Source: Antedon bifida
Taxonomy: Eukaryota; Echinodermata; Crinoidea; Comatulida; Antedonidae
Assembly: GCA_963402885.1 (NCBI GenBank)
Contig: OY727095.1
Span: 11,971,001 to 12,035,000, forward strand
Direction of reading: 5' to 3'
Length of the DNA stretch: 64,000 bases
The notes below the pieces were generated by a model. That model was not told where the DNA came from. It searched no databases and saw only the letters and a list, made by a program, of their open reading frames with translations. Positions 14,176 to 38,800 of this stretch are shown piece by piece; the stretch's first letter is position 1, and each line of letters starts with the position of its first letter. A program made the position numbers and the translations under genes.

Positions 14176-17100
14176 ATGGTGAGTAAAGGGGGTGCCATGA
14201 ATTTATGGTGACTGATAAAACCTGCTATGTTAATTGTTATTTCTGTTGGTTTACACTTCCCTGGTCCCGGTGTAACATGTGATTATAGTACCTCTTTTTG
14301 CGCTCTGTAGAAACGAAAACATTCAACCGCTTCAACATAGAGTATGCGAACAGTGTGCGAGTAACATGTCTATAAAATCATCAGTTGAAAGGATTTATTT
14401 GTTTCTTTTTTATTGATCAGACCTTCATAAAAGTACTTATGAGCAGAGGCCTAATTCTATGGTGTGGTATTCATGATAGTTATTTTTATCAAATTTTGTG
14501 TTAAGACAGGTGCGAAAGGGAACTACCACCAACATTGTCATCAATCGAAGATGTCTTCCATATCGTGAAAATGGCGTATAATTCAAATTTAGGTGTTCTA
14601 TATGTAGCATTCAACATGATCAGACACTGACTCAATGTATGCGTTTGATTCAATTCAATTGTTCATGATGATTAAGCCATGTAAATGCTGGAATTACCGG
14701 CTGAAAAATTTTGATGATAACGTGGCGTCTGAAAATAATTGGATTATGTAATGTTATATTCTTGCTCTATTTTCCCTTTGTCCTATTTATATGAAATTGA
14801 CATTGAGTTTATAAGTAAATACATTTGTTTTTTAGGGGTTTGTAAAAGTGGTGAAGAATAAGGCCTATTTCAAAAGGTATCAAGTGAAATTCAAGCGTAG
14901 ACGACAAGGAAAAACTGATTATTATGCTCGCAAACGCTTGGTTATTCAAGACAAGAACAAGTACAACACCCCAAAATATCGTTTGATCGTGCGATTCACC
15001 AACAAAGATATCACATGTCAGGTAACATTACAGCTTATTTGTACTATCATTTGGTACTATGTCTGTGGCCATATTAATAATAATTTTCTTGGACAACAGG
15101 AAAATAAACCCCATACCATTTAACTATAATTTAAAAATTCTCTATCTAAATGAATCCCAAAATTCCTAAAATAATTATTGACAGATAAGTTATTAGTGAA
15201 AACAGCCACTGATGCCTTTACCACTACTGAAGTATATTTAGAGTTGAGAGTGAATTTGGGTGTTTGCGCAGCAATACTCAATGTATAGCCATACCAACCA
15301 TTTATTTTGTGATGACTAAGCCATGTAAATGCTGGAATTACCGGCTGAAATATTTTGATGATAACGTGGCGTCTGAAAGAAAAAATGTGTGGCTGTTAAT
15401 GAAACATTGCCATGTTTTTGAGATGGTGACAAATTGTCTGAATATACTTTTTTTCATAAAGGTTTTGACAGTTTATTCACTTATAATGGTACTGGTATAC
15501 AGACAAATAGATGTTGATACCAGAATACTTTTCAACAAGGTCCTTTTTTTTCATTTTCAGATAGCGTATGCCAGAATTGTGGGAGACATTATCATAGCTT
15601 CAGCTTATTCACATGAACTACCCAAGTATGGCATCAAGGTCGGGTTGACCAACTATGCTGCAGCTTATTGCACAGGACTTCTCATTGCAAGAAGGGTAAA
15701 TTATCATTATCATAAACTTATCAATGGTCCAAGCATAAAGCAAATGCTTTAATTTATTAAAATAGTGTGTATTTTAAACCATGTTTGTCTTTCTACTTTC
15801 TAATTCTACTGTACAACACAGTGGTATACTTTTATAAGGTTTTGATGATGATTAAGCCATTTAAACGCTGGAATTACCGGCTGAAACACCCTGATGTTCA
15901 AGTGGCGTCTGAAAAACAAACATTTCAATTGGAGGAAAACTTGCATGTAAAATCAACTAATGTTTATATGGGTCATACACAAATTTGACAGAAAATATGT
16001 ATATAATGAACACATGCAAGGTTTTAGCATTTGAAAATATGGATGAAAAATACTATGATCTACAGAATTCACATTATTTGAGAAATTGAATATTTTGTAA
16101 TGTGATGGGTACTTTAAAAATAAGATACAAAGCTGTTCCCAACAGTAGTAGTTCCCAATATGCAATGAGTGAGTTATCCGGCATGAAATCCAATCAATAT
16201 TAAATTTGATTTTGCAGATCCTCAATAAATTTAAGCTGGATGAGATTTACAAAGGGGTAGATGAAGTAACTGGAGAGGACTATTACGTAGACAGTGAGGA
16301 GGGACAACCAGGTGCTTTCCGCTGCTTCCTTGACGTTGGTCTGGCCAGAACAACCACTGGAGCTCGTGTCTTCGGAGCTCTAAAGGGCGCTGTAGACGGT
16401 GGACTGGATATCCCATACAGGTAGATTATTGGTTATATAGGCATATTGTCAGGATTGCCAGTATCAAACTTTATTACCAATTCTAAACAGTGTTATCTGT
16501 TAATAGGATATACACAAAACATACATATGTAAAGTCTTTTAGGGTGGATATTGAGATACCAGATAGGATTTCAACCAAGACTGTGGGTTTGCTAGGCAAA
16601 CATAAAATTCACCTAGCTAAACCTCCATCAATTGCTGAAATATGTGTTGTAGGCTTTCTGTATTTTTAAAGTATTTCATGATGATTAAGCCATGTAAATG
16701 CTGGAATTACCGGCTGAAATGTTTTGATGATCACGTGGCGTCTGAAAAAAACTTTATTCAAAATTACATCACAAGTCTATTGTACTGCTTTATATTTTGC
16801 TCTCCCAACCCTTTCCTTTTTGAATGGCAATATCTTTCAGATCTATGTTTTGCGAATTATTGTTTTTGACTAATATAACAATTTGCATGTCTATTTATAG
16901 CAACAAGCGTTTCCCCGGTTATGACCAAGAAAGCGGTGAATTCAACGCGGAAGTACACCGCAAGCACATCTTTGGCGGCCATGTATCAGACTACATGAAA
17001 TCGTTGGAGGAGGAAGATGAAGATGCTTACAAACGCCAGTTCTCTCGTTTCATCAAGCTTGGCGTTTCAGCTGATTCCGTAAGTAAAATGTGTTTAAAAT

Positions 17101-18259
17101 AGAATCTCGACAAATTAAATGTGTGGCTCGGAAGTAGTAGGGTAGACATTGTTTATAGTTTAAACCTGAAACATAATAATGTTCAGGTTTCATTAAATAC
17201 TTGTTTCAATACATGCTATTGCATTATTATCGCAGTGGGATTCTTTTATAAGGTTTTGATGATGATTAAGCCATTTAAACGCTGGAATTACCGGCTGAAA
17301 CACCCTGATGTTCAAGTGGCGTCTGAAAAAATTTAAAGTGTTTTAAAATTAAGAAATATACTGTGATTGTATAATGACTACTGAGCTAACTTATATATTT
17401 AGCGTTAATTGGTTGAAATTTAATTTAAGGTATTTGGCAAATTATAAGACCAACCTGGATAAAGAATTTAAAGTATATGGGAATGGATACATAGTTATTA
17501 CATTGTTATTTTTAATAGATGGAAGAAATGTACAAGAAGGCGCATGCTTCCATCCGCTCTGATCCTGTTCATGTATCCACTGCCAAGCCAAAGCCAGACA
17601 AACAAAAACGGTAAGTACATAGTTGTGAAAATACTACAACCCAATTAAATGCAAAGGTCACAGCAATTTACTACCGTATCAAAAACAAACAATAATCCAT
17701 TCTAAGCAACGGCGAGGACGATGGTCAGTAAAGCCGGATAAGTTAATTTTAGGCTTAGGTGGCTGAAAGTATTGGCAGATCAATGCAAAGACAGTCTCTC
17801 TGTTTTAATATTGTACGACACTGTTAAGACAATAGTCTTATCTTATATTCCTAATCATTGTTTCTGCATGCTAGTCTTCCAAGGAAACCAAAACATAGAT
17901 CTTTTCATCCTGCTAAGAGATCTGTGCTCCAATTTATTGAAAGTAAATTTTGATGCTAAAGAAAGAATTGTGTTGAATTTGTTTTTATTTTGTGATGATT
18001 AAGCCAAGTAAATGCTGGAATTACCGGATGAACTCCTTTGATTATAACTTGGCGTCTGAAAAATACTAAACAAATAACTTATTTATTACCTTCGTTGGTT
18101 ATCAGACTGATGTTGTTGTCTCATTTCTTTTATAATTTTCATTAAATTAAAATTGTTATGTTATGTAGATGGACCCGTGCAAAGCTGTCCAAGCAACAAC
18201 GCACCGACCGAGTACGACAAAAGAAGGCATCATTCAAGCGGGCTAACAACATCGAATAA
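14176..18259 (+). CDS. RPL5: Ribosomal protein L5 (uL18), complete
   Basis: 60S protein that binds 5S rRNA with RPL11 and forms part of the central protuberance. Coding exons: 14176-14178 (the ATG alone), 14836-15021, 15561-15695, 16218-16420, 16901-17078, 17519-17610, 18169-18259. All junctions are GT-AG and all phases agree, giving 295 aa against 297 in human. Exon 1 ending exactly after ATG is as I recall for vertebrate RPL5. Recognisable blocks: [98 protein letters not shown], and a basic C-terminus. Each of the six introns contains one C/D snoRNA, so the gene is also a snoRNA host. Stop TAA is at 18257-18259, with polyadenylation signals at 18308 and 18389. Confidence 0.98.
14661..14736 (+). 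ncRNA. C/D-box snoRNA in RPL5 intron 1 (SNORD65/snR77-like), copy 1
   Basis: C box ATGATGA 14665-14671, D' CTGA 14701-14704, C' TGATGA 14712-14717, D CTGA 14729-14732. Flanks AATTGTT and AATAATT can pair as a terminal stem. The D' guide GCTGGAATTACCG is antisense to 13 nt of the conserved 18S 530-loop (CGGUAAUUCCAGC). The fifth base before D' pairs with the U of CGGU, the position I recall as human 18S Um627 (SNORD65) and yeast Um578 (snR77). Second guide: AACGTGGCGT before D. Confidence 0.9.
15303..15381 (+). ncRNA. C/D-box snoRNA in RPL5 intron 2, copy 2
   Basis: C box GTGATGA 15309-15315, D' CTGA 15345-15348, C' TGATGA 15357-15362, D CTGA 15373-15376. The same 18S guide GCTGGAATTACCG precedes D'. 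Second guide AACGTGGCGT as in copy 1. Flanks CATTTATTTT and AAGAAAAAATG form a terminal stem of different sequence from copy 1, which suggests maintained folding. Confidence 0.9.
15838..15918 (+). ncRNA. C/D-box snoRNA in RPL5 intron 3, copy 3
   Basis: C box ATGATGA 15845-15851, D' CTGA 15881-15884, C' CTGATG 15891-15896, D CTGA 15909-15912. The 18S guide is unchanged. The second guide is TTCAAGTGGCGT, differing from copies 1, 2 and 4. TTTT/AAAA closing stem. Nearly identical to copy 5 over the whole RNA and about 15 bp upstream. Confidence 0.9.
16672..16751 (+). ncRNA. C/D-box snoRNA in RPL5 intron 4, copy 4
   Basis: C box ATGATGA 16678-16684, D' CTGA 16714-16717, C' TGATGA 16725-16730, D CTGA 16742-16745. 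Same 18S guide; second guide TCACGTGGCGT. Flanks AAAGTATTT and AAAAAACTTT pair with one mismatch. Confidence 0.9.
17252..17332 (+). ncRNA. C/D-box snoRNA in RPL5 intron 5, copy 5
   Basis: C box ATGATGA 17259-17265, D' CTGA 17295-17298, C' CTGATG 17305-17310, D CTGA 17323-17326. Guides are identical to copy 3 (GCTGGAATTACCG and TTCAAGTGGCGT). The shared flank CTTTTATAAGGTTTTG shows that copies 3 and 5 arose by recent duplication or were homogenised. Confidence 0.9.
17986..18065 (+). ncRNA. C/D-box snoRNA in RPL5 intron 6, copy 6 (altered D' box)
   Basis: C box GTGATGA 17992-17998 and D CTGA 18056-18059 are intact. The position of D' reads ATGA (18028-18031) instead of CTGA, and C' is degenerate (TTGATTA). 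The 18S guide GCTGGAATTACCG (18014-18026) is still perfect. Second guide TATAACTTGGCGT. Closing stem ATTTT/AAAAT. It may have lost D'-directed activity, or it may be tolerated as a weak box. Confidence 0.82.
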
Positions 18260-25467: not shown

Positions 25468-28400
25468 CTGGAAAGAAAAGATATACTTTAAAGTATATAA
25501 TCTACATTTTAAATACAGTATTGCATCTCCTATTAAGAGGATACTCTTTTGATTGGTTGAAAGAGCATCATGTGATTATTAGTAAAGATACTACAATGTC
25601 ACAACATTGGCACATTTAACAAAATAGTTAATACTAGACTAGAATAGTTAAGTATTTATAATTTGCTTTAAAATAGCCTCACAACTGCACTGTCTACCTC
25701 TTGAACATGCCATTCTACATAGCCTCCTTCTTTTGATGAAGATGGAAACAGCAGATATTGAATAAATGTTTACTTTAGTTTAACGTTAGGTGTGTTTAAA
25801 TGTTTATTTTGCCTATTCACAGTTTCTGATTAACACTATGGTACATGCTGCATTCTAAATTGTAAGATTTCTGCATAAGTTGGTGGCATCTCAACGAATA
25901 CTAATGTAGTAGACCCACTATTTCAGGCACCTCATAATTTTACTCAAAAGTATATTTGTAGCTGATAAATTTTGAAAGACGTACTTTTAACAGAGCAATG
26001 TACACCGACAAACTTGATTGTTTTACTTTCAATTCTGGTATTTTGCTAAGCGTTTCTTGAGCTGAAATCAAAATGATACACAACAATAAAGTGGAAATGC
26101 AGGAGAGGAATTAGGTTGGTATAAACATTTTGTTCAAATCAATTCTTCTTTGTACCAATCAGTGCCAACAAAAAAACCAAAACATTTTAAAGTTACATCA
26201 TTTTGCAAAATCTTATACATAGACTTTTACTGAAGAAAATTTTAAACCATTATGGTAGCTGGATGCATTATTACAGTAATGCAGAAACTACAGAGGGCAT
26301 GTCTGCATTGGGAAAATTTATAATTCTAGCTAGAGCACCTTTTGAAATCTTCATCTGTCTATCTCTAGTCACAAATCCAGCATATTGTTTCAACAAGTGT
26401 TTGATCTGAGCTGCCACAATGGTGTCCATTAAAGTGCCTTTTGGCCTCCCTACTTTCCGTGAAGTCTTTGGTTTTGATGGCTGTTCTCCTTCATCTTTCT
26501 CCTCTTCATCTTCAAAGTCATCTTCCTCATCCTCATCCTCGTCCTCCGATTGGCTGCTGTTCTCAGACTCTGTGATGCTGTATTTGCGCTTTTTTGGTCT
26601 TCTTTTTCTTAGTACGTGGGGTTTTCCGTCTTTATTTCGATCCTTGCATATCTGTTCTATCTCACTTCGTCTGAACCATTCACGGAGTTTGTTTGCATTT
26701 GGAACTTGATCCCATTTATTTTGTTCAATCAATTGCTATAAAATGATGGAAACAATTCAATCAATTACAGAATATTTATTAATCAATACACCACAATTAA
26801 TACCAACACTCCTACGAATACAAACACTCCTACTAATACCAACACTCCAACCACTACCAACACTCCAACTACTACCAACACTCCAACCACTACCAACACT
26901 CCAACTAATACCAACACTCTAAACACTACCAACACTCCTACTAATACCAACACTCCTACTAATACCAACACTCCTACTAATACCAACACTCCTACTAATA
27001 CCAACACTCCTACTAATACCAACACTCTAACTAATACCAACACTACTACTACCACCAAAATTCCAACATTTCCAGTGCAAAAACACTGATCAACTATTAT
27101 GATAATTTACCATAATCTGTTTTTTCCCGACCAACTTCTTCTTTAAATGGTTGATATATTTCCTCATCCATTCACACATTTCCTTTGACAAACTCCCGTC
27201 TTCCTCTTTGATTTCAACTTTTACTTCATCCTCTTCGGCATTCTCCTCTATTTTATTTTTAAATCTGTTTATTTGTACCTCCTACAAAAAAAATCTTAGT
27301 TTTAAAAATCAATTTGAAATATTTCAAACTAAATAAAAGTTTATTTTAAGACAGTTGGTGTATTAATTATAAAACAAAAAATGGATGTATTGTATTCGTT
27401 GAATGGAGAGAATGTTTCATTTGATGAGAGATTGACGGGTCTATTTAACAAGGTGGAGCAGTCGAGTATTCAACTAATGAACGAAAACAAAAACAAAATA
27501 TTCTCACAATTCAACTCGTGAACATTCATTATTTGTATATTATACAAACCCCTAAATAAATTCCTGTCATTTGATTGGACAATTGTGGGTCACATAGCGT
27601 GCAAAAGTGTGCACTATTGAACTTTTCATCATTCACCTCATGCCATTATTTGTACAATTACACTCATAAACATTCATTATTTGTATATTGTTTCATGTTT
27701 TAAATTTAAAATACCAGTATGAAAAGTGTAAGTAGATTTTTAAAAAAAAGTTTTAACTTACCAAAAGTCTTTGCCTAATGACAAGGCCATTCATTGCCCT
27801 TTCATGTTTTGAATTGGTACGTTTTGCCAACTGTTCTGTCATAAGCCTCCAATTTCCTAAAATTCTCATTAAAATGTTAAAATTATTATAATTTTTTTTT
27901 GTCAAGGCAATCTGGACCAGGATCCCAATTCTGGACCACTTTTTATTATTATTTTCAGACCTGTTAGTGTTAAAAGATAGTAGACAATTTTCAAAAGCTG
28001 GCGATCTAGTACTAAGCAGTCATTAGGTTCATAGTAAAAATAAATAAATATGGATTATTAAGAATAAAAAATAATTGATTATTGACAGCTTTTATGTGCA
28101 TGCCTGACACGTCTAGATCACTTCTACATTAGGCACAAGGAGATGGATGATATAATTTGAAAATGTACTAGGCTTGGATCCTAAATACTAAACAAATTAA
28201 ATGTACGTTTGCAGTACCTTTGCCATATTCAAGCCTCATCTCCAATAATGCAATGTCTTCCTCAATCGACCATTTTCCACTTTTTCTTTGAGGATTTAGA
28301 CTAGTCAACCATCTAATAATGATTAAGAATACAAAATTAATTAGATACAAATCAAAGGACACTGCCAGTACTAAACTTAATGACTTAAATTTGAAGATCT

Positions 28401-35868: not shown

Positions 35869-38800
35869 TCAGTACCCATTACAGAAGTTGAATCTATCCT
35901 GCCCCTTATCGTGCGTTACTTCTTCAACTCTTGTAAGATTTTCTGTACTCTTTGGTCGTTTTAATTGCCCATTACATGCACCATTATGCTTTTTAGACTC
36001 TTTTCTGGCAGCAATGCCAAACAGTAACCCAGCACTGGAGATGTTTCCAGACTTTGAAGAAGTATTACTCTTTAGTCTTTTGTTCTCTTTCTTCAAATTT
36101 GAAGCAGACGATGACTTTAAATTGTTCTTTTGCTTCTGCTTGTTTTTTAAACGTCGATTTTTCATGTTTTCATTTGCCTGTAAAATAATCAAAAAGAAGT
36201 ATTTTTAATAATAATAATAATTGATGATTGTTGATTACTGATGATTACTGATGATTGTTGATGATTTATGATGATTGTTGAAGATATTGATGATTGTTGA
36301 TGATTGTTAATGATTGTTGATGATTGATAATTGTTGTTGATTGCTGATGATTTATGATGATTGTTGAAGATATTGATGATTGTTGATGATGATTGTTGAT
36401 GATATTGATGATTAATGACTACTGATCATGATCAATAATGATGATTGATGATGATTGATAATGGATGATGATTGATGACTGATGATGATTGGTCTTTGAC
36501 TGTATAATCAAAATTGTGTTGCAAGATGGATTTGGCTAAATCAGGTAATAATGTACATCAAAAGCCAATTAATAAATTAATGAAACATCTAAGATACATT
36601 TCAACAAACAATTTACATAATGTTATTACTATTACAAAAGAACAAAACATAAGGTGCAAATGGTATGAAGGATCATCACCTGAAGAGACGCCTGTCTTAT
36701 TGGTGTCGGTGGTTCGATTATTAATAATTCTTCACAACCTCCTGTACAGGAAATGAAAACAAAAAAGGAAACATGCTACTTTAAAGAAAATAAATTTATG
36801 GGTGAAAACAGAAACAGGTTGTAATTTAATCATAAAGCCAAGCAAAACAATACTTATACTTTATTGCATATAAATCAAACATGTAAGAATGAACTTATGA
36901 ACCTAAAGCTCTGTCTATACTATCTACGTCTCAAATCAAAATCTCCGTATTACTGTATTTAAATCCATTGTTGTTTGATAAATTTATTATATAAAGCTCT
37001 GTCTACACTATCAAGCTCTGTCTACACTATCAAACTTTATGTGACAAATACCATACATGGGCATGATGATATCATATCACTACCATATTTAAGCATACCA
37101 TACCTACCTTGGGCACATCATACTTTTTGTTTGATTGTTAGTTTGTTTGATAGTGTAGACAGAGCTTTAGACTTTAAAATAAATGTAGTCATGTGGAGTC
37201 ATACCATATTACCACAATGGGAGATCTTCAAATATTTTTTTGAGGATACACAGAATATACAAACTTGGTTTTCTCAAGCAATGCTCTTATCAATGTCTTT
37301 CTAACCACCCCCATACCACCCCTTCTCTATCCATCAATGAAATCATAATCACTCTGACATTATTTATAGAACAAAAATCAAAATATCATATTAATAGAAA
37401 ATCAAAAAAGAATATACAGTATTCGACAGTACACTACCTTCTAATTTACCACCTTCATGTGGCAAGTTAAAAACACTTTTGTGATTAATTCTACCACTGT
37501 ACGAATTCCGTCTGCCATGACTCTTGGAAGGCGTTGTTATCGACAATTCTTGCAGACCTGCAGGCAACGTTTCTTTTACCTGTCGACGAGAACGTGTGCA
37601 AACCAACAGACAACAGACGATGGTAACCTCTATCAGCATTAGAAAGAAATGACTCTCAAATGTCTAGAAAAAATGTGATAATTCAGTTTAAATTCTATGG
37701 TAAAAGAATCTTGAAATAAGGCACAAAATACAATTCACATTAAAACTTCAAATAAAATGTTTTGGATGTAAAACAGCCTACTGCTAATTTGTGTATAACC
37801 ATTTCTAATAAGGAATCATCACACACTAGGCCTGAAAACCTCCAACAGAGTTTTATTACAAAAAGGATTTTTCTTACCTGGTTATGTAGATTTTCAACTG
37901 TATAATTCAAGTTATTAATTGATGTCTTTAACTTCTTGATCTCACTTTCAAGTTCTTTCACATGTTCTGCTTCTATTTGTTTCTGAGGAATAAACACATT
38001 TAATTTCACACCATTATCACAGATCACCAAAACAATCACACTAAACTATTATAACTATCTTCATAACTATTTATAAGGGCAGGTGGAAACAAAAGCTGTC
38101 ATTGTCAATTATTATCAAAGGTATCATTCTCTCAAAATCCTGACCAAAAAAAACCTTAAATAATATTTAGATATTTTATTTCTCATTTTATGTATTTAGG
38201 CACATGTGGCCAAGGATTACAAATAGTAAATTAATCACTGTCCTATCAGAACAGGACCAGTTTACAGGGTAACAGAATAATGAACTAGGTTCTATAAAGT
38301 GCAGCACCGGACAAACTGGACTTACGGTTTATAGTCCTTATCCGAGAAGACATGTTCAGCCACCAGAGTGAGTCAGCCTCAAACCCATTCCGATATTGTT
38401 GGCTATTTAGGTACAGGTACTGCCTGCCTTAACCGCTCAGTCATTTGACTCCATTTTTAAAAATATGTAAGGACTATTACTAAAATTGCAAGAATTTTTA
38501 ATGATGTTTTAGCCAATATTTAAAATGACAATTATTAATCCATTATCTAACCTTCTCCTCAGCTATCATTGCATCTTCATAGAGCTTTGCCACTTTAGTA
38601 TCATACGTCTTCCTCATGTCATCCATTTGCTTTTTATAACTTAAAAAAGAACAGTAGTAAAAATTATGTATCTGGGAGGTTAGTGAACATAATCTATACG
38701 GGTTTGAGGTTCTTTAGCTGTAAAATAAGTACATGTTTAATTATGGTTAAAGTAGTGTTTAAATTAGTCTTATTAATTACATTTTACAATATGTACCCCC

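What the first reader, a model, noticed from the sequence alone, without database searches (positions are those of the whole stretch)
14661..18065. Every RPL5 intron carries a copy of the same C/D-box snoRNA (six copies in one gene)
The sequence shows six paralogous C/D snoRNAs, one in each of the six introns. All have an unchanged 13-nt D' guide complementary to the universally conserved 18S 530-loop, pointing to the U that SNORD65/snR77 methylate in human and yeast (by recall). As I recall, vertebrate RPL5 introns host SNORD21 and SNORA66, not this family. One-per-intron amplification of a single guide within one host gene is unusual and suggests dosage selection or a lineage-specific expansion coupled to ribosomal-protein transcription.
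Basis: partly seen in the sequence, partly recalled or inferred. Interest (0 to 1): 0.9.

Follow-up and report, generated by a model that had tools for sequence, protein, structure and literature searches.

The report
Six-copy snoRNA in feather-star RPL5
In what is very probably a feather star (crinoid), each of the six introns of the ribosomal protein gene RPL5 carries a copy of the same small guide RNA, predicted to mark one fixed spot in ribosomal RNA; both the guide and this kind of arrangement were known elsewhere, so it is a neat new case rather than a new kind of thing.

Summary
Six 67-nt box C/D units lie one per intron in an intact RPL5 gene. All keep a 13-nt D' element complementary to the 18S 530 loop as printed in the Rfam consensus; the D'+5 rule points to the U assigned to snR77/HBII-135 (SNORD65). 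The host is very probably a crinoid (RPL5 92% identical to Anneissia japonica). Two DNA searches of the 315.6-Mb genome found these six copies and no others, so this is not a scattered transposon. New here: an internal helix between the C and D sides, pairable in 6 of 6 copies with two compensatory changes, so the D side looks structural, not a second guide. Best explanation: a SNORD65/snR77-type guide multiplied by duplication within its host. "Unusual" is overstated: Xenopus has U17 in all six introns of r-protein S8 (PMC7601244), and most human C/D families sit in one host gene (PMC8178906). Dosage selection is plausible but unshown. No RNA or methylation data were available, the organism's own 18S could not be fetched, and Rfam matches stay below gathering score.

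The parts
14176..18259 (+). RPL5 (uL18) host gene, ATG to stop; seven exons, 295 aa, six introns; exon 1 (ATG only) inferred
   Evidence: exon joining gives an open frame; 92% identical over 100% to Anneissia japonica L5; 3 PF17144 exon matches in the genome, all at this locus
14660..14739 (+). snoRNA copy 1, intron 1; C..D body 14666-14732; guide 14687-14699; inner 7-bp stem 14676-14682 with 14720-14726
15304..15383 (+). snoRNA copy 2, intron 2; C..D body 15310-15376; guide 15331-15343
15840..15919 (+). snoRNA copy 3, intron 3; C..D body 15846-15912; guide 15867-15879; body identical to copy 5
16673..16752 (+). snoRNA copy 4, intron 4; C..D body 16679-16745; guide 16700-16712
17254..17333 (+). 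snoRNA copy 5, intron 5; C..D body 17260-17326; guide 17281-17293
17987..18066 (+). snoRNA copy 6, intron 6; C..D body 17993-18059; guide 18014-18026; D' degenerate (AUGA); most diverged copy
15819..15839 (+). upstream flank shared between copies 3 and 5 (partner 17233-17253): trace of the youngest duplication or conversion
   Evidence: 98-nt match at 98% that includes this flank

Best explanation
These are six paralogous intronic box C/D guide snoRNAs, isofunctional with SNORD65/snR77. Each spliced RPL5 intron would be debranched and trimmed to a snoRNA of about 80 nt whose D' antisense element pairs 13 nt of the 18S 530 loop, so that fibrillarin 2'-O-methylates the U opposite the fifth base upstream of D'. 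The region before box D does not guide: it pairs with the region after box C in an inner helix that extends the C/D kink-turn stem. The copies arose by repeated short duplications or conversions between introns of the one host gene. They stop at one per intron, plausibly because one intron yields one snoRNA, so up to six guides could come from each RPL5 transcript. Shown: sequence, architecture, complementarity to the conserved 18S, pairing and covariation of the helix, copy number found. Inferred: processing, methylation, duplication route, any dosage benefit.
For: Six 67-nt C/D bodies, one per intron. The target letters CGGUAAUUCCAGC stand in the Rfam eukaryotic SSU consensus; the guide pairs 13 bp in 6 of 6 copies, against at most 11.5 (G-U counted half) for 30 shuffles per copy on L010. 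Sub-threshold Rfam hits include the snR77/snoR77Y/SNORD65 clan CL00057. Inner helix: 60 of 60 cells paired, two pairs changed on both sides; 2 of 500 shuffles reach the covariation score. D side pairs the rDNA loci no better than shuffles. No other copy found in the genome. Copies 3 and 5 share 21 nt of further upstream flank. A terminal stem is predicted in 6 of 6 copies. Copies in several introns of one host are common (passages of PMC8178906, PMC2653536, PMC3412847).
Against: No Rfam match reaches gathering score. Of the listed hits the clan is top only for copies 3 and 6; copies 1 and 4 score highest with plasmodium_snoR24 and copies 2 and 5 with fungal Afu_300. The genome search with RF00571 listed only 1 of the 6 known copies. 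No RNA data. The organism's own 18S could not be fetched (RF01960 requests unanswered). D-box to 3' splice site distances are 103-305 nt, longer than the roughly 70-80 nt I recall as favoured in mammals. Terminal-stem signal is modest: 28 of 720 permutations do as well, and for 4 of 6 copies 21-33% of random intron positions are as stable. Copy 6 has a degenerate D'. The minimum-energy fold shows the inner helix in 5 of 6 copies, not in copy 4; its support rests on about three independent changes, 49 of 500 shuffles reach the count of doubly changed pairs, and the structure was drawn from these same sequences.
Confidence: 0.88

Rival explanations
1. On the copy number (not exclusive of the best explanation): neutral ratchet. 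One working snoRNA plus five non-selected duplicates, young enough to look intact; copy number has no function.
For: Copies 3 and 5 have identical bodies, so at least one duplication or conversion is recent; within-host copying is common (passages).
Against: Bodies differ by up to 14 of 67 sites, yet guide, C and D boxes never vary (P 0.0004) and helix changes are compensated; most flanks have diverged.
Confidence: 0.3
2. On the copy number (not exclusive of the best explanation): selected dosage. More guide per RPL5 transcript is needed, for example for fast ribosome production, and all six copies are under selection.
For: Every intron is filled; six length-weighted random placements would do so with probability 0.015; functional parts unchanged in all six; no copy found outside RPL5.
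Against: A limit of one snoRNA per intron would give the same pattern; no expression or fitness data; the regions of two other r-protein genes (RPL4, RPS7) show no such amplification with the scans used.
Confidence: 0.35
3. A mobile element or short repeat that happens to lie in the introns.
For: Repeated units followed by short A-runs.
Against: Found only in RPL5 in a 315.6-Mb genome; no exact direct repeat of 7 nt or more flanks any copy within 45 nt, one 6-mer at copy 6; clear flank homology only for copies 3/5, plus 9 of 10 bases right before copies 2/6.
Confidence: 0.02
4. The D side is a second guide, so this is a double-guide snoRNA.
For: UGGCGU before box D is invariant in all six copies.
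Against: Best pairing with rDNA loci of other eukaryotes scores 6.5-9.5 against shuffle means of 8.3-9.1; the segment is explained by pairing with GCCANNU after box C. The crinoid's own rRNA and its snRNAs were not tested.
Confidence: 0.06

Closest known systems
SNORD65 / HBII-135 (vertebrates; Rfam RF00571)
   Same: Same D' guide core GCUGGAAUUACCGG (Rfam consensus); chicken HBII-135/snR77 row gives a 13-nt 5' guide and 18S-U-588 (PMC2653536)
   Different: Listed as a single copy in chicken, in another host (mRNA CR391615 intron 4); copy 4 scores 30.1 against gathering 41; by my reading only about 3 bp (ACC/GGU) at the place of the inner helix
snR77 (yeast; RF01181) and plant snoR77Y (RF01178)
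   Same: Same guide element; top listed Rfam hits of copies 6 and 3
   Different: Scores 37.9 against 50 and 35.9 against 52; by my reading the printed consensus shows no GCCA/UGGC inner helix
Xenopus U17 in r-protein S8 (Cecconi et al. 1994, known here through a passage and reference in PMC7601244; that paper itself is not held)
   Same: Same snoRNA repeated in all six introns of a ribosomal protein gene
   Different: U17/snR30 is H/ACA class and acts in 18S processing, not in methylation (start of the abstract seen)
Vertebrate C/D families with several copies in one r-protein host (chicken U18 in RPL4 introns 2,5,6; human SNORD58 in RPL17)
   Same: Several copies in introns of one r-protein gene (passages)
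   Different: These cases show three copies (others in the chicken table two or three), not all introns filled

Membership tests
Box C/D snoRNA | C box (R)UGAUGA near 5' end and D box CUGA near 3' end | tested here: met
   6 of 6 copies
Box C/D snoRNA | Terminal stem bringing C and D together | tested here: inconclusive
   stem predicted in 6 of 6, but only copy 1 clearly (0.65%) and copy 6 marginally (5.7%) beat random intron positions; 28 of 720 permutations as good; a strict 4-of-5 rule passes 4 of 6
Box C/D snoRNA | Binds 15.5K/Nop56/Nop58/fibrillarin; stable small RNA | not testable with these tools
   needs RNA or protein experiments
SNORD65/snR77 guide | D' element of about 13 nt complementary to the 18S 530 loop, U at position 5 from D' | tested here: met
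   13 bp in 6 of 6 against the Rfam SSU consensus and 4 rDNA loci (those loci were fetched by a pattern that holds the target, so they add no independent proof); the organism's own 18S not retrieved
SNORD65/snR77 guide | Curated Rfam gathering score of RF00571, RF01181 or RF01178 | tested here: not met
   no gathering hit in the window; best 37.9 against 50, 35.9 against 52, 30.1 against 41. Named here as the same guide by function, not filed as an Rfam member
SNORD65/snR77 guide | Methylation of the target uridine | not testable with these tools
   needs RiboMeth-seq
Transposon or dispersed repeat | Copies outside the host gene; homology beyond the functional unit; target-site duplications | tested here: not met
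   the genome search can miss strongly diverged copies

The most novel reading that the evidence does not exclude
In this crinoid lineage the whole capacity to methylate the 530-loop uridine has been tied to RPL5 splicing at one guide per intron in every intron, as a selected dosage device, with a helix-locked single-guide form of the RNA that differs from vertebrate SNORD65.
Probability: 0.25. Interest if true: 0.55.

Novelty: new member of a known kind. Interest (0 to 1): 0.36.

Why it matters
It adds another case, in another phylum, another snoRNA class and another host gene than Xenopus U17, of complete one-per-intron filling of a ribosomal protein gene. Six natural copies of one guide in one transcript would allow a direct test of whether snoRNA copy number sets rRNA methylation level, and the paralogues point by compensatory change to an inner helix that would explain why only one side guides.

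Tried and rejected
Second guide on the D side: rejected for rRNA as far as tested, pairing no better than shuffles and the segment can be helical.

Retroposition: no exact flanking direct repeat of 7 nt or more within 45 nt.

SNORD65 Rfam search of the genome: only 60 of 88,347 candidates were scored and only one of the six known copies was listed, so it says nothing about absence; its second hit (L008) is a match of the guide core without a C box.

Other r-protein genes in the same genome: regions around RPL4 and RPS7 show no repeated C/D unit by repeats of 45 nt or more, Rfam (no snoRNA family at E up to 0.5) or a strict C/D rule (0 candidates; that rule also misses 2 of the 6 RPL5 copies). 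Intron limits of these genes were not worked out. R1 gave a weak hit in the RPL4 region on the strand opposite to RPL4 (20.9 bits, E 0.0043); it lacks a proper C box. RPL3 and RPS8e were asked for but did not complete.

Other C/D-like strings in the window are TGATGAT simple repeats at 36.2-36.5 kb, plus two isolated minus-strand strings. Weaker R1 hits in the window (E 0.12 to 9.6) were not followed up.

Papers: passages only were read of PMC7601244, PMC3412847, PMC8178906, PMC2653536, PMC6770171 and PMC12218551; others were seen as search listings. I saw no paper on crinoid snoRNAs or on snoRNAs in echinoderm RPL5 introns in the lists shown (20 of 53; 10 of 174); this is not proof of absence.
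Full report
What is there. The window holds an intact RPL5 (uL18) gene on the + strand: seven exons from 14176 to 18259 join to 295 codons plus stop, with GT..AG introns. Exon 1 contributes only the ATG; its place is inferred from a donor site that follows it. Each of the six introns holds one copy of an 80-nt unit, on the sense strand. The C-to-D bodies are all 67 nt with no indels. The 14-mer GCTGGAATTACCGG is present six times and nowhere else in the window within two mismatches (0.15 expected).

Which organism. The RPL5 protein is 92% identical over its full length to Anneissia japonica, a crinoid; the next named animals in the list (the best 120 of 7990 are shown) are hemichordates at 76%. 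The window lies in a 315.6-Mb genome of 27 contigs, at C8:11971001-12035000. So the host is very probably a crinoid.

What the unit is. C box UGAUGA, D box CUGA, a D' box (CUGA in five copies, AUGA in copy 6) and a C'-like box (UGAUGA, UGAUGU or UGAUUA) are in place. The 13 nt GCUGGAAUUACCG upstream of D' pair perfectly with CGGUAAUUCCAGC of the 18S 530 loop. The independent support for the target is the Rfam SSU consensus, which prints these letters. I also scanned four of six eukaryotic rDNA-bearing loci found in prokaryote assemblies; they were fetched with a pattern that holds the target, so their match is by construction, and only L010 and L012 were confirmed as rDNA by Rfam. The base next to D' (G) faces a G and does not pair. 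The fifth base upstream of D' is A, facing the U in CGGU. The chicken table of PMC2653536 lists the same kind of guide (13 nt, 5' element, 18S-U-588) as HBII-135/snR77. The human and yeast numbers U627 and U578, the name helix 18 and the use of '530 loop' are recalled. No Rfam family reaches gathering score in the window. Below it, snR77 is the top listed hit of copy 6 and snoR77Y of copy 3; copies 1 and 4 score highest with plasmodium_snoR24 and copies 2 and 5 with fungal Afu_300, a family that carries the same guide core with one extra base. I therefore call it the same guide by function, not an Rfam member.

An inner helix. Minimum-energy folds show a helix between the C and D sides in 5 of 6 copies; copy 4 folds otherwise. 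Counted on the alignment it has 3 + 7 pairs: GAU[UAA]GCCANNU from within the C box onward pairs with ANNUGGC-GUC that ends with the C of the D box. All 60 cells are standard pairs. Copy 6 changes U-G to A-U, copies 3 and 5 change G-C to U-A, and copy 2 changes U-G to C-G. Shuffles reached the covariation score in 2 of 500 and the number of doubly changed pairs in 49 of 500; slid versions pair 28 to 55% of cells. The evidence is about three independent changes, and the structure was derived from these sequences, so it is good but not overwhelming. It explains why the D side is conserved without being a guide: its best pairings with the rDNA loci (6.5-9.5) are no better than those of shuffled segments on L010 (means 8.3-9.1). 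By my reading the printed Rfam consensus sequences of snR77, snoR77Y and Afu_300 do not show it, and SNORD65 shows at most ACC/GGU there.

Copy number and origin. Two DNA searches of the whole genome, with copy 3 (body identical to copy 5; E up to 0.001) and the most diverged, copy 6 (E up to 10), each returned six candidates, all six scored, all in RPL5. The tool skips very common words, so a strongly diverged copy elsewhere is not excluded; a gapped-pattern search that would have tested this did not complete, and the RF00571 search is uninformative. RPL5 itself is found once (three exon matches, one locus). Bodies fall into three groups: copies 1, 2, 4 (2-3 differences), copies 3, 5 (identical) and copy 6 (8-14 differences from the rest). 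Ungapped flank identity is mostly at background; the clear exceptions are copies 3/5 (10, 9 and 7 of 10 in the first three upstream blocks; a 98-nt match at 98%) and copies 2/6 (9 of 10 in the first upstream block only), with a few other adjacent blocks at 6-7 of 10. Some gapped BLAST matches run up to about 36 nt into A/T-rich flanks at lower identity. No exact flanking direct repeats longer than 6 nt were seen within 45 nt. Short duplication or conversion between introns of one gene fits best. Six independent placements weighted by intron length would hit six different introns with probability 0.015, which fits either a limit of one snoRNA per intron or selection for filling all introns; the sequence cannot tell these apart.

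Signs of maintenance. Of 16 variable columns none is in the guide, C hexamer or D tetramer (P 0.0004; columns treated as independent). A terminal stem is predicted in 6 of 6 copies; 28 of 720 partner permutations of the flanks do as well or better on average, and only copy 1 (0.65%) and marginally copy 6 (5.7%) stand out from random intron positions. Distances from D box to the 3' splice site are 103, 184, 305, 155, 192 and 109 nt.

Is it unusual? [quoted passage not shown] PMC2653536 reports within-gene duplication as the route of almost all chicken paralogues (passages), and PMC3412847 finds neighbouring-intron duplicates in sponge r-protein genes (passages). In this genome, the RPL4 and RPS7 regions, the 2 answered of 4 r-protein families I asked for besides RPL5, show no repeated C/D unit with the scans used.

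Verdict. A real, well-formed, probably functional set of six guide snoRNAs, known in guide and in arrangement, new in combination as far as I searched, with an inner helix worth testing. Not shown: expression, processing, methylation, dosage effect.

Noticed in passing
window 36239-36482: TGATGAT-rich simple repeat that mimics C/D boxes in naive scans.
   Followed up: partly
L030 1973-2116: Sub-threshold matches on both strands to microRNA families (mir-2011, 36 bits against 80) near crinoid RPS7: perhaps a long hairpin or inverted repeat.
   Followed up: no
L027 7608-7994 and 9113-9500: Near-duplicate stretches 1.5 kb apart beside crinoid RPL4, 83-89% identical.
   Followed up: no
window 26742-27106: Overlapping open frames on both strands over a low-complexity repeat (TNTPTNTNTP-like / VLVLVGVLV-like), about 360 bases.
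   Followed up: no
L010: Eukaryotic rDNA with three group I intron matches in a contig filed as a Thermodesulfobacteriota MAG: probable contamination.
   Followed up: partly
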